Source: Burkholderiaceae bacterium (lineage in GTDB: Bacteria > Pseudomonadota > Gammaproteobacteria > Burkholderiales > Burkholderiaceae_C). From it: a DNA stretch of 33,075 nucleotides. The stretch spans positions 1-33,075 of the forward strand of contig JAITMV010000224.1 in NCBI GenBank assembly GCA_031277295.1. Direction: 5' to 3'. This document shows positions 8,539 through 20,014 of this stretch, one piece after another. The notes beneath the pieces are model-generated. The model saw only the letters and a list, made by a program, of their open reading frames with translations. It was not told the origin of the DNA and made no database searches. The position numbers were made by a program, and so were the translations under genes. Positions within the stretch are counted from its first letter, which is position 1, and each line of letters starts with the position of its first letter.

Positions 8539-9702
8539 ATGAAAGGAGTTTTTTGGAAGTTGGCAACGCTGGCGGTTGTCGCGGCGTTGAGTGCGTGTGG
8601 AAGCGGCGGCTCCCAGGGGCCAGGTAGCGCCACGGGCATCACCTCGGTCAAGGTCATGGGCGACAGCCTGTCGGACAGCGGTACCTTTGCCGGCGTGCCC
8701 GGCTACGGACGCATTTTCAGCGTCCAAGGCAGTAGCGCTGAACCGAACGTCGGCTGGACCGAGCGGGTCAACGCCAACCTTGGGCTGGCACAACTATGCA
8801 GCTTTTTTCGCTTTACCGGTACCAGCTTTAATTCAACGCCCGGCTGTACCAGCTTTGCCGTCGGCGGCGGTCGTATCAACGCGGTGACTCAAACAGGCGG
8901 CCAGCAAGGTCCGTTTTCGGTGGTTTATCAGTTGCAAACCGCGGCTATGGTCAACGGCGAGTATGTGGCAAGTGATCTGCTGCTGCTCGACGGTGGCGCC
9001 AACGACGCGGCTGATCTGGTAGGCGCCTATCTCGCCACCGCCAAAGACGGTGGCGCGAGTTACCAAGCGTTACTGCTGTCTTTGCTGCCTGCGGCCACGG
9101 TTGAGCAATTGCTCGGCCAGGGAAGCACCGGCTTGGCCCAGGCCGGCGGTGCGTACATGATCGCGTTGGCCGATTTGTTTTACAACACGCTCAAGACACA
9201 GGCGTTGGACAAGGGTGCCCAGCACGTCGCTGTGCTGAACATACCGGCCATCACGCTGACTCCGCGCTTGCAGATGGCGCTGGGCGGCGTTGCCGCTGCG
9301 CAAGGCGAGGCCGTTGCCGAGCAAACCAAGACATTGTTCGATTCCTGGGTAAAAGCCTTTAACGCACAACTGGTTCAAAACGTCGGCAGCGACAAGCGGA
9401 TCGTGCTGGTCGATTTTTATACCAGCTTCGTCAATCAATGGAACTCGCCGGCGCAGTACGGCCTGAGCAATATGACCGTCCCGGTTTGTCCGGCCACGGG
9501 CGTAGGCGCGGACGGATTGCCGACGTACACCTTTGAGACCTGCACCGCGCAGGCGCTGTCGGCCAACCCGCCGGAAGGTTCGTTAGCCCCTGATTGGTGG
9601 CAGACCTATGCTTTTGCCGACAGCTTCCATCCCACCCCCTACGGCTATCAGCTTATGAGCCAGATGGTGAGCGAGGCGCTGGCTAAAGCCGGATGGTTTT
9701 AG
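8539..9702 (+). CDS. SGNH/GDSL-family hydrolase, predicted lipoprotein
   Basis: 387 residues. A lipoprotein signal with lipobox L-S-A-C puts the modified Cys at residue 20. Block I is VMGDSLSDSGTF with the nucleophile Ser at 43; block III is GGANDAAD with Asn at 155; block V is DSFHPTPYGY with Asp 361 and His 364. Together these give a complete SGNH esterase/lipase triad. A periplasmic or outer-membrane lipid anchor is inferred. AAGGACGAAGC before the ATG is a fair Shine-Dalgarno. The 218 bp upstream are clearly more A/T-rich than the surroundings. The substrate is unknown. The neighbours do not indicate an operon; the next gene (tagF) converges on it. Confidence 0.88.
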   Translation: MKGVFWKLATLAVVAALSACGSGGSQGPGSATGITSVKVMGDSLSDSGTFAGVPGYGRIFSVQGSSAEPNVGWTERVNANLGLAQLCSFFRFTGTSFNSTPGCTSFAVGGGRINAVTQTGGQQGPFSVVYQLQTAAMVNGEYVASDLLLLDGGANDAADLVGAYLATAKDGGASYQALLLSLLPAATVEQLLGQGSTGLAQAGGAYMIALADLFYNTLKTQALDKGAQHVAVLNIPAITLTPRLQMALGGVAAAQGEAVAEQTKTLFDSWVKAFNAQLVQNVGSDKRIVLVDFYTSFVNQWNSPAQYGLSNMTVPVCPATGVGADGLPTYTFETCTAQALSANPPEGSLAPDWWQTYAFADSFHPTPYGYQLMSQMVSEALAKAGWF

Positions 9703-10554: not shown

Positions 10555-13500
10555 CTAAAACTGAGTCGGGCAGGAGAACTCGTCCAATTCGCGCAGTCGA
10601 AAAGGATTTTGGACACTATTGGTGGTAACCTCGAAGACGATCTTCTTGCCTTGAATCGTGGCGGTAGCCAGAAATCTCTCAGGCGCCGTCCGGGAACTGA
10701 CGGACAGCTTGTCAAAGAAGCGGTGCAGCGCCCATGGACCTTCGGTTTTTATGGCAACACCGTTGAAGTCTTGTCCGGTAATTTCCAGCAAGACATAACT
10801 GAGTTTGTTCGGCCCAGGCCAAGTCAGGGATTGGGCAAGCTGAGGTCCGTGACTGTATCGCACGATGGAGCCATCGACATCGAGCGACATGCTTAATATT
10901 GTGGGGTCCATTTCCACCGGCTTGATCGCTAGCCGGACCGAAGGCATTCGATCACCGGTGCGGAAAAACACGTCTCTAATCACGGCGGCTGTCTTGAAGG
11001 ACGCCAAGGAACCGCTGCCTCCGGCCCATGAACCATCAATATTTTTCTTGAAGGTCCAAGTCGAGGTGTCAACGATGGAGGACAGGTTCTTGTGGAAGAA
11101 GTCGTCCATCAAGCCGTTTGGGGCGAAGAGGTGCGCGAAATCCTCCGGCGTGACATCCGAAGTTCCCGAGCGGCGCAAAGGGTAACGTCCGGCAATCGCG
11201 CGTCTGCAAAAGTCACCCACCGTCGAGTTTAGATTAGTACCTATTGAAGCCCGTACCAGATGAGTGGTCTGGCCAATACTTGACGCAGTGGCTTGATTAA
11301 TCATGCCCCGCAGGGGTTGCGGCAGCCGCGCCGCTTCGGCGCGAAGGCTAATCACCGATTCTTGCGAAGGCGGCCTATCGCCCGAGCGGATTGCGGCATT
11401 GGCGGCCACAAGCGTTCCGTAGTATTGATCGAGCATTTTCAACGTCGCGTCAATAGGCGCCTGCTGAGTCGGCGGGGCGCCGGGAGGCCCGACAAGCTGC
11501 CGGATCGGCTCAAAGCGATCATCAACGATGTGCTCCAATTTGCGATCTGGCGCGCCTATCGTCAGAGGCCCGACAACACGCTCAATTTCGTTCCTGGTGT
11601 TTTTGAGACGTTGTTTGGCGCGATCAAATAGGGAGCGTTGATCGCCGGTGAGGTTATCTCGCAGCAGTGTGGTTTCTTTGACGACCGCTTTCAAAAACAG
11701 GGGCAGGGGCGAGTCGGGAGCCGACAGCACGCGCATCTGCTGGATGGATGTTTGAAGCGAGTCACTGGGTATGAGCTGAATGTCGTTTAGGTATTGATCC
11801 CAGGTATCGGCGTACTCCCGCAAATAGACCATGCGGACCTCGCGCACCAGCTTGCCCCGTGTGGCCTCTTCTATCTGTGTCTTGTCGGTCTTGCCAGGCA
11901 GTCCAAGTACCCACGCCTCATCATCGGCCATTTCAGCGGAGGCTTTGCCGACCTCTTTGTCAAAAACGTCCCAATAGCCCTGGTAGGTAAAAAGCCCACT
12001 GACGCCGCGATTCAGGGGCAGTTTGCTGCGTCGCGTGAATATGTTGGCGGCTTGCGGGCCTGCTGCGTCCAGCAAGTTGAACGCGGGTAGATCCACGGTT
12101 TCAAGCTGCGCTCGTAAACGCGAGTAGACACGCTGCGCCGTGGTTAAGGTTTCAAGTTTTTTGCGCGCTTGCGCCAGCAAATCATCGTTGATCGGAAAAA
12201 CAGACGTAATGATGCGATCTTTGTTGATCAATTTCGCCAAATGCGTATCCATTCGCTCTAGCGTGTCGGCGTCGGCGTCCGGCATCAGATAACGGCGCGC
12301 GTCGGCAGACACCCATCGGCGTAAATATTCGGGGTCGTAGTGCTCTGCCTCATACAGCATGAGATAGCACTTCAAAGCTTCAAAGAGGTATTCAAGTGTT
12401 TCAACCGGAGGCCGCTGAACCTGGGATTCCAGACGTTTGGCGATGATCGGCAGCAGGCCGTCTTTGAGAAGATGCTCATAGGTGGCTTCGGCCGTTACGC
12501 TTACCTTGCTGCCCTGATATAGCCCGTAGCGGTACGGCAGATTCGGGTGCGCTCTGGGAAAAGCCGAGGTATCGCCCAGGTGCTGGGCTTGCTCAAGCAA
12601 GGCGATCATGCTTTCCATGTCGCCGTCGCCCTGGGGGTACGATGAGATCGCCGCAGAAAGCTTTTGCACGTCCTTGCCGACGTCGGCAAGATAGCTTTCG
12701 TTGTTTTTGTAGCTGATTATCCAGGCGCCAACGGCAATGGCCAGGACCAAGACGGAGGCGACATAGCCGGCGTAGGTGAGCCACTTGACCTTCCGCTCCC
12801 AACGGATATTACGCCCCGCTAAATGCGTTTCCTTAAATATCAGACTAGAAAAAAGATCGTAAAGGAAGTAGCTCTTGCCCTGATTGGGGACAATGCGGAA
12901 ATCGGCAGTCCGGCTGCTCGGGAAGTTGCGGCGCAGCGTGCTCAGGATACGGTCAAATGGAGTACCTTCCTGGGTTCCACTCGAAAAATAAAGGCCACGC
13001 AGCAACGGGCGCGCAACCTGTTTGGATTGACGAAATATGATTTCAATGGCTTCGCGAAGAATTGTTTGAAGACCGGCCAGTTGCTGAGGCAAGCCGTAGA
13101 TCGCGCTAAGTCGCCGCGATTCCGTTTCTTTGGCGAGTTGTTCATCTTGAAGCCGATACAGACGATCTTGCAGCAGCGCCCACTCGTGGTCAAAACTCTC
13201 GACAATATTCTGAGTACGATTTTCCTCCTGATATTTGAACGTGAACCCCCACACTTGTTTGCGTGGGTCGGTGCTGTAGCTGTCGAAAAATTCGCTGAAC
13301 CCAGCCAGCAAATCGGTCTTCGTAATCCAGAGGTATACAGGCAACTCGATGCCGAAGCTTTCTTGCAACTCGGCAAGCCGGGCCTTCAAGGTGTTGTAAT
13401 GCGCATCGCGCTCATCCCGGCTGAAAGCCAGCACATCGGCGATGCTAAGCGTCAAGATGACGCCATTGATGGGTTGCCTGGGGCGGTATTTTTTCAGCAG

Positions 13501-14187
13501 ACCAAGAAAACCACGCCATTCGGTTTTATCAACCTCTGCATGGCTGTCTTGCGTGGTGTAGCGGCCAGCGGTATCGATGATGACAGCTTCGTCGGTGATC
13601 CACCAGTCACAATTGCGTGTTCCGCCGACTCCCTTTAGTGCTGCGCGTCCGGTTATTTCTTCCAACGGAAAGTTGAGTCCGGAGTTGACCAGCGCGGTTG
13701 TTTTTCCGGAACCGGGAGCGCCGATGATGAGGTACCAAGGCAGCTCATAGATATAGCGACCGGATAAACGGTTAAAGCTGCCTTTGGAGGCGTGCAAACT
13801 CTTGATGCTGTTGAGCGCCTGGGCGAACCGCTCTTGTAGTTCTTCAACTTCACGGGGCTTTTGCGGCTTACCTGACGGATCAATTTTTTCCTTGACGGGG
13901 CGCGCGGCAATTTTGGCTAATTGATCAAGGAATTTGGCGTTCAGGTTCCTTCGGCGCCAAAAGCGCATGAGCCACCAAATCAGAAATAGTACGAAGACGG
14001 TGATGATGACATTCCAGCGGGCGCGCTCGCTTGCCAACGGCCTGGATTCTCCGTAAGCAAATAGCGGACCGGAAAACCAAATAAAAGCACAAAGCGCTAC
14101 CAGGCCCAACAGGACAAGCGTGGTCCGGTTGACGGCCAACCGGAAAAAGCTGGCAAAAAAGTACAGTATGCGGCGGAAAAAGTACAT
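10555..14187 (-). CDS. tssM: type VI secretion membrane-complex protein TssM (IcmF)
   Basis: 1210 residues, full length for TssM. Two hydrophobic segments at about 22-44 and 58-74 bracket a short loop, and a third (YVASVLVLAIAVGAW) lies near 460-480. Between them is a cytoplasmic NTPase domain with Walker A GAPGSGKT (156-163), VIIDTAGRY (about 202-210) and an ITKTD element near 288-292. The long C-terminal part is periplasmic, where TssM contacts TssJ. With TssJ and TssL it forms the trans-envelope complex that docks the baseplate. The intact Walker A suggests NTP binding. It lies 6 bp after tssL and is visibly more A/T-rich than the flanking housekeeping genes. Confidence 0.95.
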   Translation of the reverse strand: MYFFRRILYFFASFFRLAVNRTTLVLLGLVALCAFIWFSGPLFAYGESRPLASERARWNVIITVFVLFLIWWLMRFWRRRNLNAKFLDQLAKIAARPVKEKIDPSGKPQKPREVEELQERFAQALNSIKSLHASKGSFNRLSGRYIYELPWYLIIGAPGSGKTTALVNSGLNFPLEEITGRAALKGVGGTRNCDWWITDEAVIIDTAGRYTTQDSHAEVDKTEWRGFLGLLKKYRPRQPINGVILTLSIADVLAFSRDERDAHYNTLKARLAELQESFGIELPVYLWITKTDLLAGFSEFFDSYSTDPRKQVWGFTFKYQEENRTQNIVESFDHEWALLQDRLYRLQDEQLAKETESRRLSAIYGLPQQLAGLQTILREAIEIIFRQSKQVARPLLRGLYFSSGTQEGTPFDRILSTLRRNFPSSRTADFRIVPNQGKSYFLYDLFSSLIFKETHLAGRNIRWERKVKWLTYAGYVASVLVLAIAVGAWIISYKNNESYLADVGKDVQKLSAAISSYPQGDGDMESMIALLEQAQHLGDTSAFPRAHPNLPYRYGLYQGSKVSVTAEATYEHLLKDGLLPIIAKRLESQVQRPPVETLEYLFEALKCYLMLYEAEHYDPEYLRRWVSADARRYLMPDADADTLERMDTHLAKLINKDRIITSVFPINDDLLAQARKKLETLTTAQRVYSRLRAQLETVDLPAFNLLDAAGPQAANIFTRRSKLPLNRGVSGLFTYQGYWDVFDKEVGKASAEMADDEAWVLGLPGKTDKTQIEEATRGKLVREVRMVYLREYADTWDQYLNDIQLIPSDSLQTSIQQMRVLSAPDSPLPLFLKAVVKETTLLRDNLTGDQRSLFDRAKQRLKNTRNEIERVVGPLTIGAPDRKLEHIVDDRFEPIRQLVGPPGAPPTQQAPIDATLKMLDQYYGTLVAANAAIRSGDRPPSQESVISLRAEAARLPQPLRGMINQATASSIGQTTHLVRASIGTNLNSTVGDFCRRAIAGRYPLRRSGTSDVTPEDFAHLFAPNGLMDDFFHKNLSSIVDTSTWTFKKNIDGSWAGGSGSLASFKTAAVIRDVFFRTGDRMPSVRLAIKPVEMDPTILSMSLDVDGSIVRYSHGPQLAQSLTWPGPNKLSYVLLEITGQDFNGVAIKTEGPWALHRFFDKLSVSSRTAPERFLATATIQGKKIVFEVTTNSVQNPFRLRELDEFSCPTQF

Positions 14188-14193
14188 GTCTGT

Positions 14194-15456
14194 TTACTGC
14201 GTCGATTGGACGGTTGGCGCTACCATCAGCAGGATCTCGACACGCCGATTACGTGCACGGTTTTCTGCGCTGTCGTTGGGGACCACGGGATCGGATTCAC
14301 CCAACCCTTGCGCATGAATGCGACTTGGATCCTGCAAGTCGCGCACGAGGATATCCTTGACATGGTTGGCGCGTGCTTGCGACAACTCGTAATTTGATGG
14401 GAACTGCACCGTGCGTATCGGCACGTTATCGGTATACCCGTTCACCGTTACATTACCCCTGACCGTATTCAACGCATCCGAAATACGTTGCAAGGTCTGT
14501 AGATAGCGACTCTGGATGGTTGCGGAGCCGGAGGCAAAAAAACTATCACCGCGCAATATGACCACACTTCGATCCGCCTCGTCATGTACGGTCACCAAGC
14601 CCTCTTGAACTTCCGGTTCCAAAAATTTGGCAAGTCGCGCCGGCCCCGGTCTGGGTGGCGTGTGTATTTTCGCCAGACGCATTACGCCAATTTTGGTCGA
14701 TACCCTGTCCGACTGGTCAGCCAATGCAAAAACAAACCAGAGATAGGTCAGCACTCCAATGAGAAGGGCAATACAAGCGGCCACCCATGCCGGCAACAAA
14801 CGCCAGCCACGATTGCCGGGATCAATCTCGCCGCGCCAATGAGGCGACAAGGTGTCTTCCTTTTCGGGCGTGGTGTCGCGAAAAATTTGCCATAGACGCT
14901 GACGCAAGATTTCAAGCTGGGCCTTTCCGTTATCGATGATTCGAAAACGTCCCTCAAACCCAAGGCACAAGCAGTAGTACATCAGTGCCAGCAGATCCCG
15001 GTGCTGCTGCGGGTTTTGCGCCAGTTTCGACAAAAGCTGAAAGAATTTCTCGCCGCCCCAGGTCTCGTTATGAAAAGTGACCAGTAAGCTGTGCCTGGAC
15101 CAGACTCCCGAGCTGCCCCACGGCGTTTGCGCAGCCGTTTCATCCAGCAGCGTGCAAAGGCAATAGCGCGCTCCAATAATTACATCAGGGGCAACGCCCC
15201 TTTGTTGCGCATCGCGCTCAAAGGTTTTTATTTTTTCGATTAGATACTGTTGCAGCCGGGAATGATCACCGAGCTTCAGCAGATTTCGAATCTGGGGTAC
15301 CAAATTAAGCACCGGATTGGCTGCTGCCACGAGCGGATTCGCACCGCTGGTAACGTCCGGCAGGTCAGTGCTGGGCAGTTGTTCATGCTGCTGCAAGGGC
15401 AGGTTTGAGCCTGCCAATACAGCTCCGGCTTCGGAATGAGCAAGGGGTGTACTCAT
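14194..15456 (-). CDS. tssL: type VI secretion protein TssL with C-terminal OmpA-like peptidoglycan-binding domain
   Basis: 420 residues. Residues about 40-195 are the DotU/TssL cytoplasmic domain (YCLCTLLDETAAQTPWG, SLLVTFHNETWGGEKFF, LLALMYYCLCLGFEGRF). A single membrane segment spans about 221-246. Residues about 290-412 are an OmpA/MotB-like domain with FFASGSATI, NGYTDNVPI, ELSQARA and NRARNRRVEI. This is the 'evolved' TssL, whose peptidoglycan-binding domain anchors the complex without a separate TagL. 113 bp separate it from tssK upstream, so it may have an extra promoter; tssM follows after 6 bp. Confidence 0.95.
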   Translation of the reverse strand: MSTPLAHSEAGAVLAGSNLPLQQHEQLPSTDLPDVTSGANPLVAAANPVLNLVPQIRNLLKLGDHSRLQQYLIEKIKTFERDAQQRGVAPDVIIGARYCLCTLLDETAAQTPWGSSGVWSRHSLLVTFHNETWGGEKFFQLLSKLAQNPQQHRDLLALMYYCLCLGFEGRFRIIDNGKAQLEILRQRLWQIFRDTTPEKEDTLSPHWRGEIDPGNRGWRLLPAWVAACIALLIGVLTYLWFVFALADQSDRVSTKIGVMRLAKIHTPPRPGPARLAKFLEPEVQEGLVTVHDEADRSVVILRGDSFFASGSATIQSRYLQTLQRISDALNTVRGNVTVNGYTDNVPIRTVQFPSNYELSQARANHVKDILVRDLQDPSRIHAQGLGESDPVVPNDSAENRARNRRVEILLMVAPTVQSTQ

Positions 15457-15569: not shown

Positions 15570-16898
15570 TTAACTGCGGATGGCCCAGCATTCGATTTGC
15601 AGTCCCGGAAAATCGCCAGCGACGTGCATCGCCATGCCGCCTGAGCGCTCCAGTTGACCCCAAAGCTCATTGTTGGTGTCCAATTCGAAATAGTTATAGT
15701 TTGCATGGTATGGAAGCTGTCTTGGAGCGATGGGCATGGGATGTACCTTTACGCCAGGCAAGTGCAGATTAACCAGATCGCGAATTTTTTCGACCGGGCC
15801 GATTTTGACTTGAGTCGGGAAGCGGTTACGGATGATTTCCACGGGCATTTCGGCGAAAACCGCCAGCACGAATGTGGCGTCGCGCAGCAGCGCGTTGTCC
15901 GGTATCACGCCGACGCGGACACCATACTGACGTTCGTGCAACTCGATGGGGACGGCGTTTTGCTCCAGTACCATTGACAGCGAGCGCCGAATATCGGCGG
16001 CCACTGCCTCAAAGGACGGTCTCGGGTCGTCGTGATCGTAGACGGGATATGCAATAGGACGGCGGTTTTCCCGTGTGAACGACGACAATTCGCCCGCTAG
16101 TTCAAGAAGATGTCCGTATATGCGTTCAGGATGCAGCACACGGTGGTCGCGTAGGTGTGTCATCAGGGGTTGCCACCGGTTGACGATGTTGAGCATCATG
16201 AAGTCGCCCACCTCTGCAATCCCTCCGCGGCCAGGCTGCATGACGCGAGCCGCCAGGGCCTCGGCCCGCTGTTGCATCAAACCCGCAATGTCGTCCACGA
16301 TGGCATACAGGACGGGGCTTTGACCGTAGGCAATGGAAGGCGGAATATGCCGGGTATCGAGCACAACGGTTCCATCGTTGCGTCTTTCCAAAACGTGCGC
16401 CACGGCAAGCCGCAACCAGCTATCGGTCAGCGCGCTTTCGGGCAGCAGTTGGGCGCGCATCTGCGCGAGTTGTGCCGGCGCCGGTTCTGCGCCCTCGGAG
16501 TTGCAGTCATTCAGTTGCGCATCGGTTGCCTCGTAGCGGGCCAGCGGCTCCTCGTCGGTGAAGCGGACTTCGACAGCGCCTATGCGGCGCATGGGAAACG
16601 CGAGGAAAACGCGCTCGTCCTTGAGCAGCGGCGATATTTCGAGCGGATCGGGCAGAGCGTCCGTTCCGGGCAAACTAAAAGGGGTGCCGTCCGGGAAAAT
16701 GCCAATCGCTTTTTTCAGTACTATCTTTCCCAGGGCCAGTGCCTCGACATTGAGTTCGAGTTCACGGAACCCCCAGAAGTAGCTTTCGCTCGCCATGGCG
16801 CGGGCATGAGCAAAAAATTCGAGATAGCGTTCCTGCTGTTGGAAATGCTGCGGGCGCAGGAACATTCCTTCCCCCCAAACGACTTTCTGATTGTTCAT
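15570..16898 (-). CDS. tssK: type VI secretion baseplate connector TssK
   Basis: 442 residues, normal for TssK. The N-terminus NNQKVVWGEGMFLRPQHFQQQ is the family hallmark, and RIGAVEVRFTDEEPLARYE and the C-terminal HANYNYFELDTNNELWGQL also fit. TssK trimers link the baseplate (TssEFG) to the TssL/TssM membrane complex, and TssK receptor domains resemble phage receptor-binding proteins. The TssE/F/G partners are not in this window. The start lies 4 bp after the tssJ stop, so translation is probably coupled. Confidence 0.96.
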   Translation of the reverse strand: MNNQKVVWGEGMFLRPQHFQQQERYLEFFAHARAMASESYFWGFRELELNVEALALGKIVLKKAIGIFPDGTPFSLPGTDALPDPLEISPLLKDERVFLAFPMRRIGAVEVRFTDEEPLARYEATDAQLNDCNSEGAEPAPAQLAQMRAQLLPESALTDSWLRLAVAHVLERRNDGTVVLDTRHIPPSIAYGQSPVLYAIVDDIAGLMQQRAEALAARVMQPGRGGIAEVGDFMMLNIVNRWQPLMTHLRDHRVLHPERIYGHLLELAGELSSFTRENRRPIAYPVYDHDDPRPSFEAVAADIRRSLSMVLEQNAVPIELHERQYGVRVGVIPDNALLRDATFVLAVFAEMPVEIIRNRFPTQVKIGPVEKIRDLVNLHLPGVKVHPMPIAPRQLPYHANYNYFELDTNNELWGQLERSGGMAMHVAGDFPGLQIECWAIRS

Positions 16899-16902
16899 TT
16901 TT

Positions 16903-17736
16903 TTACCAACCTCCGGTATGCAGGGGGGGCGAATATATTCTTGGGGTTACGGTCGGCGTGGAGACGGGGGGTACACGGACCGAAGGAGCAGATACCGATG
17001 GCATGTTGACCGAAGGCCCGGATACCGATGGCATGCGGACCGAGGGCGCGGATACCGATGGCATGCGAACCGAGGGCGCGGACACCGATGGCGTGGACAC
17101 CGATGGCATATTGACCGAAGGCCCGTATACCGATGGCGTGGACACTGATGGCATGTTGACCGAAGGCCCGTATACCGAGGGCATGGTGGGGTCGTAGACT
17201 CCGGTTCCTGAGCTGCCCGTGTAATTGCCTTGTGTGCTGGTGGCTGCGGTGACCGACGATGGCCCAATGCGGATGGTCACCTGAGTCGGATCGAAGGAGG
17301 GTGAAAATAGCCTGAAACGTCCGTATTCTTTGGCGCCGGGCAAAGGGGCGACGGTGCGCCAGATGCTTCCGCCTTCGACGTTCCTGAACGCCACATAGAT
17401 ACCCAACGACCGTGCTTCTGGGTTTGCTTTGCGGGTAAGGGTAGTGCGTTGGCCTGGCCGCAACATCAATTGCTCTTTGGATAAAACGTCGCCTCCGAGG
17501 ACTTGGTCGTCTTTATCAAAAAGCGTATAAAAATCAAGCGACTGGAATTTGGAAGAGTTTCTTAATTCGTACAGGCGTACCTGCACTGGCATGGCCCGGT
17601 TCTGGCTATCGGGATTTACCCTGGCATCAGCCGAGACGACGATTGTGTATGGCGCGGGCATGACCGGTCTTGGTCCCGCGCAGCCCGACAGCGCGACAGC
17701 AACTCCCAGCACGGCAGGATAGAAAACGAGCTTCAT
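16903..17736 (-). CDS. tssJ: type VI secretion lipoprotein TssJ with an unusual repeat tail
   Basis: 277 residues, well above the usual size of about 150-190. The signal peptide ends in lipobox L-S-G-C (Cys 19), giving an outer-membrane lipoprotein. The TssJ core spans about 29-160: YTIVVSADARVNPDSQNRAMPVQVRLYELRNSSKF is typical, as is the LRPGQRTTL region. Residues 185-264 are 16 consecutive five-residue units of the form xPSVx (the last two degenerate to VPPVS and TPTVT), then PRIYSPPLHTGGW. In the T6SS, TssJ caps the trans-envelope complex and contacts periplasmic TssM. The tail is not part of the known TssJ fold. It is the first gene of the minus-strand cluster, divergent from tssA. Confidence 0.9.
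   Translation of the reverse strand: MKLVFYPAVLGVAVALSGCAGPRPVMPAPYTIVVSADARVNPDSQNRAMPVQVRLYELRNSSKFQSLDFYTLFDKDDQVLGGDVLSKEQLMLRPGQRTTLTRKANPEARSLGIYVAFRNVEGGSIWRTVAPLPGAKEYGRFRLFSPSFDPTQVTIRIGPSSVTAATSTQGNYTGSSGTGVYDPTMPSVYGPSVNMPSVSTPSVYGPSVNMPSVSTPSVSAPSVRMPSVSAPSVRMPSVSGPSVNMPSVSAPSVRVPPVSTPTVTPRIYSPPLHTGGW
16945..17184 (-). repeat. 15-bp tandem repeat (about 16 units) inside tssJ
   Basis: On the plus strand the unit reads roughly ACCGATGGCATGCGG / ACCGAGGGCGCGGAT. A 15-bp period covers 240 bp, with higher-order 30-bp and 45-bp similarity (protein stretch YGPSVNMPSVSTPSV occurs twice in succession). Because 15 is a multiple of three, the frame is kept when units are lost or gained. Units are imperfect in third positions and at the first and fifth residues. 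Confidence 0.9.
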
Positions 17737-18943: not shown

Positions 18944-20014
18944 TCAAGGCGCTTGCGCTTGCAAAAAACGCCGTATCGGAGCGGGCAGGCCCAGTGCCGG
19001 CCAGGCGCTGGGGGCGTGCCAGCGGCCTTCACTGTCGCCGTCAAGACGGTTGTTGCTGGTCAAGCGCACGCTGACCACATGCAAACTTAGATCGCGGTGC
19101 GTCAGCGCGTGAGCGATGGGCGCGCGAAACACGGCGTGGGCGCGGGTCGGCGCGGCAAGGGCGGCCAATAGTTCGGCGCGGGTGCCATATTCGGGCAGGC
19201 AATACAGGCGTGCCCATATGCCGCGCGCCGGGCGTGGCGTCAGCCACACGCGCTCGTGCTCATCTGTCGCGTGCAGTAGCCACACAGCGAGCGCGCGGCG
19301 CTCGGCGCGGCGCGTTTTGACCGGATAACACTCCGGGTGGCCGTTGCGGGCGGCCAGGCAGCGGCCAGCCAGCGGACAGACCGCGCAGGTGGGGTTGCGC
19401 CGGGTGCAAACAGTGGCGCCCAAATCCATCAAGCCTTGGGTGTAGGCAGGCATGGCGCGCTCCAAGTCACGCCGGGGTAGCAGAGCTTCGGCGCGCAGCC
19501 ACAAGGCGCGTTCGTTGGCGGCATTGCTCAGGTCGTCGGCGATACCGAATACGCGCGTCAACACGCGCCTGACGTTACCGTCGAGGATAGCGGCGCGTTC
19601 GCCGTGACAGAAGACGGCAATGGCGGCAGCGGTGGATCGGCCGATGCCGCTGAGGGCTTGCAATTGCGCGGCGGTGGTCGGGAAATGACCGTCGAAACGC
19701 GCCATGACTGCGCGCGCGCAGGCGTGCAGGTGGCGCGCGCGCGAGTAGTAACCCATGCCGCTCCACAGCGCCAGTACGTCTTCCAGCGGGGCGGCGGCCA
19801 GGTCGGCCAAGGTGGGAAAGCGCGCCAGAAAGCGCGGGTAGTAGACCAGTGCGGTGGCGACCTGGGTCTGTTGCAGCATGATTTCGGACAGCCAGACGCG
19901 GTACGCGTCGCGGGTGTCTTGCCAAGGCATGCCATGACGACCGTAGCGCCGCTGCCAGTCGATGATGCGAGCGGAAAACCAGTTTGTATCCGTGCCCGTG
20001 TTCACGCCGGTCAC
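18944..20014 (-). CDS. mutY: A/G-specific adenine glycosylase
   Basis: 356 residues from a GTG at 20014 that overlaps the stop of the upstream dynamin-like gene (GTGA), a common coupling arrangement; a second GTG at 20005 is possible. The catalytic glutamate is in WLSEIMLQQTQV (about residue 44), the helix-hairpin-helix is LQALSGIGRSTAAAIAVF, and the catalytic Asp is in AILDGNVRRVL. The 4Fe-4S site is complete as C-x6-C-x2-C-x5-C in CTRRNPTCAVCPLAGRC. The C-terminal NUDIX-like domain that reads 8-oxoG follows. MutY removes A mispaired with 8-oxoG; mutM is two genes upstream on the same strand. The ORF track's extension to 20272 is antisense-frame noise within the upstream gene. Confidence 0.95.
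   Translation of the reverse strand: MTGVNTGTDTNWFSARIIDWQRRYGRHGMPWQDTRDAYRVWLSEIMLQQTQVATALVYYPRFLARFPTLADLAAAPLEDVLALWSGMGYYSRARHLHACARAVMARFDGHFPTTAAQLQALSGIGRSTAAAIAVFCHGERAAILDGNVRRVLTRVFGIADDLSNAANERALWLRAEALLPRRDLERAMPAYTQGLMDLGATVCTRRNPTCAVCPLAGRCLAARNGHPECYPVKTRRAERRALAVWLLHATDEHERVWLTPRPARGIWARLYCLPEYGTRAELLAALAAPTRAHAVFRAPIAHALTHRDLSLHVVSVRLTSNNRLDGDSEGRWHAPSAWPALGLPAPIRRFLQAQAP

What the first reader, a model, noticed from the sequence alone, without database searches (positions are those of the whole stretch)
16945..17184. TssJ lipoprotein extended by 16 tandem five-residue (xPSVx) repeats encoded by a 15-bp minisatellite
The tssJ gene codes for a normal lipoprotein core followed by an 80-residue tail of regular PSV pentads ending in PRIYSPPLHTGGW. 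TssJ proteins are usually compact and lack such a tail. A Pro-rich periodic tail on an outer-membrane lipoprotein that caps the T6SS trans-envelope complex could act as an extended spacer through the periplasm or cell wall, or bind peptidoglycan or another envelope protein. The imperfect DNA repeat with 15, 30 and 45-bp periodicity suggests growth and shrinkage by slippage without frameshift, so tail length may differ between strains. The repeats are seen directly; the function is inference.
Basis: partly seen in the sequence, partly recalled or inferred. Interest (0 to 1): 0.65.

Follow-up and report, generated by a model that had tools for sequence, protein, structure and literature searches.

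The report
Secretion-system lipoprotein with repetitive disordered tail
An ordinary outer-membrane part of a bacterial type VI secretion machine (TssJ) has grown an unusual 80-residue, proline- and serine-rich floppy tail by repeated in-frame copying of a 15-base unit; it is probably a spacer or sugar-carrying decoration rather than a new device.

Summary
tssJ (16903-17736, minus strand) encodes a genuine TssJ (TIGR03352 and PF12790 above cut-off, lipobox, AlphaFold core matching solved TssJ). It is followed by exactly 16 pentads at 16945-17184, 14 of them with PSV. In the 14 clean units all six non-degenerate bases of the P-S-V codons are invariant while the other nine columns vary (p = 2e-4), so this looks like a translated, protein-constrained array rather than an assembly glitch. 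It is predicted disordered. Among 200 TssJ proteins surveyed it is the longest tail and the only periodic one, but long low-complexity C-tails recur (10 of 200 have 70 or more residues). The closest relatives (Comamonas/Diaphorobacter T6SS, TssK 74-76%) carry a short Pro/Gly tail such as MPSMPSLPGG, the probable seed; one relative has it frameshifted, so it looks dispensable there. TssL of the same operon already has the peptidoglycan-binding OmpA domain, which weakens the cell-wall-anchor idea. Best reading: a flexible periplasmic spacer/brush. Live rival: an O-glycan acceptor tail like the AASAP pentads of Neisseria AniA, since the genome encodes a PglL-type transferase. Length polymorphism could not be tested. 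New variant of a known kind.

The parts
16903..17736 (-). tssJ, 277 aa: type VI secretion outer-membrane lipoprotein with repeat tail
   Evidence: TIGR03352 113 bits (cut-off 31.6); PF12790 109 bits (cut-off 27); lipobox with Cys19 invariant in 32 homologues
17230..17736 (-). TssJ signal peptide, lipobox and folded core (residues 1-169)
   Evidence: pLDDT mostly 73-97 for residues 11-169; Foldseek best PDB match 3zhn (P. aeruginosa TssJ1), E 9.9e-17, TM-score 0.91 over the target
17185..17229 (-). linker of Ser/Gly/Thr (residues 170-184) between core and repeats
   Evidence: translation; pLDDT about 41-46
16945..17184 (-). 16 tandem pentads xPSVx (residues 185-264), 15-bp unit with 30/45-bp higher-order repeats
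   Evidence: non-degenerate PSV codon positions invariant in units 1-14 while all other columns vary
16906..16944 (-). C-terminal PRIYSPPLHTGGW, overlapping the likely ribosome-binding site (GGAGG) of tssK
15570..16898 (-). tssK, baseplate; starts 4 nt after the tssJ stop
   Evidence: PF05936 518 bits; 74-76% identical to Comamonas/Diaphorobacter
14194..15456 (-). tssL, long form with OmpA peptidoglycan-binding domain
   Evidence: PF09850, PF00691; TIGR03350 above cut-off
10555..14187 (-). tssM, inner-membrane partner of TssJ
   Evidence: TIGR03348 1191 bits
9776..10543 (-). tagF-like gene
   Evidence: PF09867 92 bits
17864..18916 (+). tssA (ImpA_N), divergent; ATG likely at about 17885
   Evidence: PF06812 88 bits

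Best explanation
This is a normal TssJ whose C-terminus was lengthened by in-frame duplication of a 15-bp unit (in blocks of one to three units), probably starting from the short Pro-rich tail (MPSxPSLPGG type) that this T6SS lineage carries. The product is a lipid-anchored core that binds TssM as usual, with a ~108-residue disordered, Pro/Ser/Val-rich extension on each TssJ copy. The most likely action is passive: a flexible, partly polyproline-II-like spacer or brush in the periplasm around the outer-membrane cap of the T6SS, not needed for the TssJ-TssM contact, kept in frame by constraint on the P-S-V residues. Shown: identity of the core, exact array, codon-level conservation, predicted disorder, short related tails in relatives. 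Inferred: origin from those tails, periplasmic location, spacer/brush role.
For: TssJ core and lipobox, fold match to solved TssJ; tail without secondary structure, pLDDT 41-65; nine other columns of the unit vary but none of the six non-degenerate PSV positions does (p = 2.0e-4 for units 1-14, 0.002 for all 16), with GC3 of the tail (0.67) like the core (0.62); relatives carry VPVPTGGGMPSMPSLPGGMRLPF-type tails; long low-complexity tails on TssJ arose in several lineages; EAEC TssJ with a C-terminal HA tag is functional (PMC3213119), so additions at that end are tolerated; repeat DNA occurs nowhere else in the genome.
Against: No direct functional evidence. The TssJ tail of Diaphorobacter aerolatus is frameshifted, suggesting little constraint on the ancestral short tail. 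The codon test defines PSV from the same data, so part of its strength is circular; within the PSV codons alone it is p = 0.012. AlphaFold confidence in low-complexity tails says only that no fold is predicted.
Confidence: 0.45

Rival explanations
1. The tail is an acceptor for O-linked glycans: a PglL-type oligosaccharyltransferase attaches sugars to some of the 24 serines in the tail, giving a mucin-like sleeve on the T6SS cap, as on the C-terminal AASAP pentads of the Neisseria lipoprotein AniA.
For: PglL enzymes modify serines in disordered Ala/Pro-rich regions of periplasmic proteins and lipoproteins (PMC8423747, PMC9239064); AniA is a lipoprotein with a core and a C-terminal glycosylated region containing four AASAP pentads (PMC5542605; PMC3643930); the window's own genome encodes a protein with PglL_A, Wzy_C and Wzy_C_2, all above cut-off, not beside a pilin gene.
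Against: The known preference is serine flanked by alanine; here serine sits between Pro and Val and the tail has only 3 Ala. No literature links TssJ and PglL in the library. The PglL-like gene is on a 3.3-kb contig of a metagenome-type assembly.
Confidence: 0.2
2. The array is a neutral by-product of replication slippage in a region that tolerates anything; it has no function.
For: Relatives' short tails vary in Gly-tract length and one is frameshifted; most TssJ lack any tail; 15-bp units cannot cause frameshift when they expand.
Against: Synonymous positions of the PSV codons have diverged between units while the non-degenerate ones have not, which neutral decay would not give.
Confidence: 0.22
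3. The tail binds peptidoglycan or a specific envelope partner and helps dock the complex.
For: Location on an outer-membrane lipoprotein; other T6SS accessory lipoproteins such as TagV are proposed to bind peptidoglycan (PMC7614798).
Against: No peptidoglycan-binding domain in the tail; low net charge (+3); TssL already carries the OmpA domain; no PDB chain resembles the tail (best E 0.53).
Confidence: 0.08
4. The repeat, or its copy number, is an assembly artefact.
For: Draft assembly of 279 contigs; short reads often miscount arrays.
Against: Units differ from one another at nine of fifteen columns, the frame is open through the array to a stop placed just before tssK, and codon pattern follows protein constraint. 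The exact unit count remains uncertain.
Confidence: 0.04

Closest known systems
TssJ (SciN/Lip/VasD; PF12790, TIGR03352), e.g. P. aeruginosa TssJ1 (PDB 3zhn), EAEC SciN (3rx9)
   Same: Lipobox, core fold, operon neighbours tssK-tssL-tssM
   Different: 127 residues after the profile-aligned core against a median of 24; 16 periodic pentads
TssJ of Comamonas/Diaphorobacter T6SS (L008-L013, L146-L150)
   Same: TssK 74-76% identical, TssJ 41-45%; Pro-rich C-terminal tail containing MPS or MPK
   Different: Their tail is about 25 residues with no pentads; in D. aerolatus it is frameshifted
Neisseria AniA (C-terminal AASAP repeats) and Lip/Laz (N-terminal AAEAP repeats)
   Same: Outer-membrane lipoproteins with a Pro-containing pentad array attached to the protein (PMC5542605, PMC9239064)
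   Different: Unrelated core; Ala-rich pentads; proven glycosylation of AniA, none shown here
Other TssJ with long low-complexity tails (L175, L179, L184)
   Same: Pro-rich disordered C-terminal extension of about 114-124 residues
   Different: Not periodic; Lys/Ala-rich; different lineages, so independent origin likely

Membership tests
TssJ (T6SS outer-membrane lipoprotein) | Matches the curated TssJ model above cut-off | tested here: met
   TIGR03352 113.4 vs 31.6 bits; PF12790 109.1 vs 27 bits
TssJ (T6SS outer-membrane lipoprotein) | Signal peptide with lipobox and Cys, no Asp at +2 | tested here: met
   LSGC-A at residues 16-20, Cys19 invariant in the alignment
TssJ (T6SS outer-membrane lipoprotein) | Transthyretin-like core fold of solved TssJ | tested here: met
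   Foldseek 3zhn E 9.9e-17, TM-score 0.91 on target
TssJ (T6SS outer-membrane lipoprotein) | Gene next to tssK, tssL, tssM | tested here: met
TssJ (T6SS outer-membrane lipoprotein) | Binds the TssM C-terminal domain through loop L1-2 | not testable with these tools
   No complex prediction available; role of the loop known from PMC3213119
Glycosylated pentad-repeat lipoproteins (AniA, Lip, Laz) | Lipoprotein with tandem Pro-containing pentads | tested here: met
Glycosylated pentad-repeat lipoproteins (AniA, Lip, Laz) | Ala-rich pentads (AASAP/AAEAP) | tested here: not met
   3 Ala in the 108-residue tail; motif is xPSVx
Glycosylated pentad-repeat lipoproteins (AniA, Lip, Laz) | PglL-type O-oligosaccharyltransferase in the same genome | tested here: met
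   PglL_A, Wzy_C and Wzy_C_2 in one 505-aa protein
Glycosylated pentad-repeat lipoproteins (AniA, Lip, Laz) | Serines carry glycan | not testable with these tools
   needs mass spectrometry
Plant-type extensin (PF02095 hit) | Score above the curated cut-off | tested here: not met
   30.2 vs 105 bits; a compositional match
Pentapeptide-repeat proteins of the A(D/N)LxX beta-helix kind | Match to a pentapeptide-repeat Pfam model | tested here: not met
   No such family among Pfam hits at E 0.001; sequence is Pro-rich and predicted unfolded

The most novel reading that the evidence does not exclude
The pentad array is a length-variable, O-glycosylated sleeve on the T6SS outer-membrane cap: a slippage-tuned, mucin-like tail that shields the firing pore or sets its spacing from the cell wall.
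Probability: 0.1. Interest if true: 0.6.

Novelty: new variant of a known kind. Interest (0 to 1): 0.3.

Why it matters
TssJ is regarded as the compact cap of the T6SS membrane complex. A TssJ with a repeat tail longer than the usual whole C-terminal part, and evidence that disordered C-tails recur across TssJ lineages, suggests that the outer-membrane cap tolerates, and may use, disordered sleeves. If glycosylated it would be the first link between general O-glycosylation and the T6SS membrane complex that I could find in the library searched.

Tried and rejected
Assembly artefact or chance: rejected by unit divergence, open frame and codon pattern. Misreading of frame: rejected, since the frame runs from the TssJ core to a stop just before tssK. 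A repeat family spread through the genome: rejected; all twelve matches to three in-phase PSV units lie in this one array. Phage origin: a scan of viral contigs for four in-phase units gave 36 contigs; the two with several matches that I translated (L277, L296) have PSVG arrays in unrelated frames, and the others were not read. Extensin homology: below cut-off. PDB relatives of the tail: none better than E 0.53. Papers on TssJ C-terminal or Pro-rich extensions: no paper describing one was found among the listed titles and abstracts. Misbinned contig: rejected for the right flank, because mutM (fpg), the dynamin-like gene, the TPR gene and ispE are syntenic in other genomes of the genus; the left flank was not tested.

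Full report
What is there. On the minus strand, 16903-17736 encodes a 277-residue protein. Residues 8-138 match the curated TssJ model TIGR03352 at 113 bits (cut-off 31.6) and residues 31-137 match PF12790 at 109 bits (cut-off 27). The lipobox cysteine (residue 19) is invariant among 32 aligned homologues. AlphaFold2 gives a confident core and Foldseek puts it on P. aeruginosa TssJ1 (3zhn, E 9.9e-17, TM-score 0.91 over the target), Serratia Lip and E. coli SciN. After a Ser/Gly/Thr linker come 16 pentads, residues 185-264, window 17184 down to 16945, then PRIYSPPLHTGGW.

More than chance. Fourteen of sixteen units carry PSV in phase; 20,000 shuffles of the same residues never exceeded four. 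Tandem Repeats Finder sees the array at 15, 30 and 45 bp, and units resemble those two, three and four places away more than immediate neighbours: three unit types (M/T-PSVS, A-PSVR, G-PSVN) were copied in blocks.

Is it translated and constrained? In units 1-14, the six non-degenerate bases of the P, S and V codons never vary, while the three third positions of the same codons and all six bases of the flanking codons do (Fisher p = 2.0e-4; with all 16 units 0.002; within the PSV codons alone 0.012). Columns share one duplication history, so this comparison between columns is not inflated by relatedness of the units; but PSV was picked out from the same data, so the larger contrast is partly circular. 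It says the units are old enough to have diverged and that the protein sequence was kept. Third-position GC of the tail (0.67) is like that of the core (0.62). The stop lies four bases before tssK, whose likely ribosome-binding site GGAGG is inside the last tail codons.

Neighbourhood. The gene is first in tssJ-tssK-tssL-tssM-tagF, with tssA divergent. TssL is the long form with an OmpA peptidoglycan-binding domain (TIGR03350, PF00691). The T6SS segment has GC 0.52-0.59 against mostly 0.60-0.68 around it, and none of the other 28 genomes of the genus has a TssJ, so horizontal acquisition is likely. The right flank (mutM, dynamin-like, TPR, ispE) is syntenic in other genomes of the genus, so the contig is in the right bin at least on that side. 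The rest of the machine (tssB, tssC, hcp, an ImpE-like gene, tssE, tssF, tssG) lies on contig C96 at similar GC3; that it belongs with the window's half is an inference. A second set of T6SS genes, with another TssJ without a tail, is on C275 and C111.

Relatives. The nearest TssK proteins (74-76%) are from Comamonas and Diaphorobacter. Their TssJ ends in about 25 Pro/Gly-rich residues, such as VPVPTGGGMPSMPSLPGGMRLPF, VPVPTGGMGSRMPSLPGGMRMPF or MPVPTGGGSMPKLPGGISLPF. A pentad array could have grown from an MPSx seed like these; this origin is inference. In Diaphorobacter aerolatus the same tail is frameshifted, the old reading GGGMPKLPGGISLPF surviving in another frame, so the short tail was dispensable there.

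How unusual. I collected 200 distinct TssJ proteins with a stop codon from Burkholderiales, other Gammaproteobacteria and the TssK scan. Residues after the profile-aligned core: median 24, 90th percentile 52. The window's 127 is the longest. Ten have 70 or more, among them three Pro-rich, non-periodic tails of 114-124 residues (L179, L175, L184) and several helical or Lys/Ala-rich ones. The periodic array is unique in this sample, and in its own genome. The sample is heavy in Pseudomonas, and only genomes held in the collection were seen.

How it probably works. The tail has no predicted secondary structure (pLDDT 41-65). Proline every fifth residue without glycine-rich flexibility favours an extended chain; 80 residues at about 0.3 nm per residue would reach some 25 nm if fully extended (established polymer geometry, not measured here). 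An E. coli TssJ with a C-terminal HA tag is functional (PMC3213119) and TssJ contacts TssM through loop L1-2 at the other side of the core, so an extension at this end should be tolerated. I therefore commit to a passive spacer/brush, at 0.45. The strongest rival is an O-glycan acceptor: PglL enzymes use serines in disordered Ala/Pro-rich stretches (PMC8423747, PMC9239064), the Neisseria lipoprotein AniA carries a glycosylated C-terminal region with AASAP pentads (PMC5542605), and this genome has a PglL-type protein not beside a pilin gene. Against it, known sites prefer alanine neighbours and this tail has almost none. Pure neutrality is nearly as likely; the codon pattern is the main argument against it. 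Peptidoglycan binding has no positive support, and the operon already supplies an OmpA anchor.

Verdict. Observation confirmed, interpretation partly supported, a new variant of a known kind. Interest 0.3: a real oddity with a clear origin and cheap tests, but probably a lineage-specific ornament of TssJ. What could not be done: other strains (none available), complex modelling, and any wet test.

Noticed in passing
L013 3973 and upstream (Diaphorobacter aerolatus): The TssJ tail is frameshifted relative to its close relatives; frame +2 still reads GGGMPKLPGGISLPF followed by a stop.
   Followed up: partly
L175, L179, L184: Other TssJ proteins with 114-124-residue Pro-rich, non-periodic C-terminal tails in other families; possible recurrent disordered sleeves on TssJ.
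   Followed up: partly
L318 (G000 C275), L319 (C111): A second set of T6SS genes in the same genome, with a tail-less TssJ, an FHA protein, tssK, tssL, tssM and, on C111, a tssF.
   Followed up: partly
L320 1511-8736: tssB-tssC-hcp-impE-like-tssE-tssF-tssG followed by dnaG; probably the other half of the window's T6SS, split from it.
   Followed up: partly
L319 3340-7202: Next to tssF lie an RTX / serralysin-C-like ORF and a 603-residue ORF of low GC3 (0.48) without Pfam match; possibly cargo of the second T6SS.
   Followed up: no
L323 1701-3218: PglL-type O-oligosaccharyltransferase candidate in the same genome, not adjacent to a pilin gene (an RraA-like ORF precedes it).
   Followed up: partly
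window 8539-9702: GDSL-type lipase/esterase lipoprotein gene convergent with the tagF end of the T6SS operon; could be cargo or unrelated.
   Followed up: no
window 18944-20010: mutY-like gene (TIGR01084 above cut-off) next to the T6SS segment, which marks the conserved right flank.
   Followed up: yes
L277, L296: Viral-collection contigs with many in-phase PSVG units in one reading frame; may be antisense or low-complexity frames.
   Followed up: no
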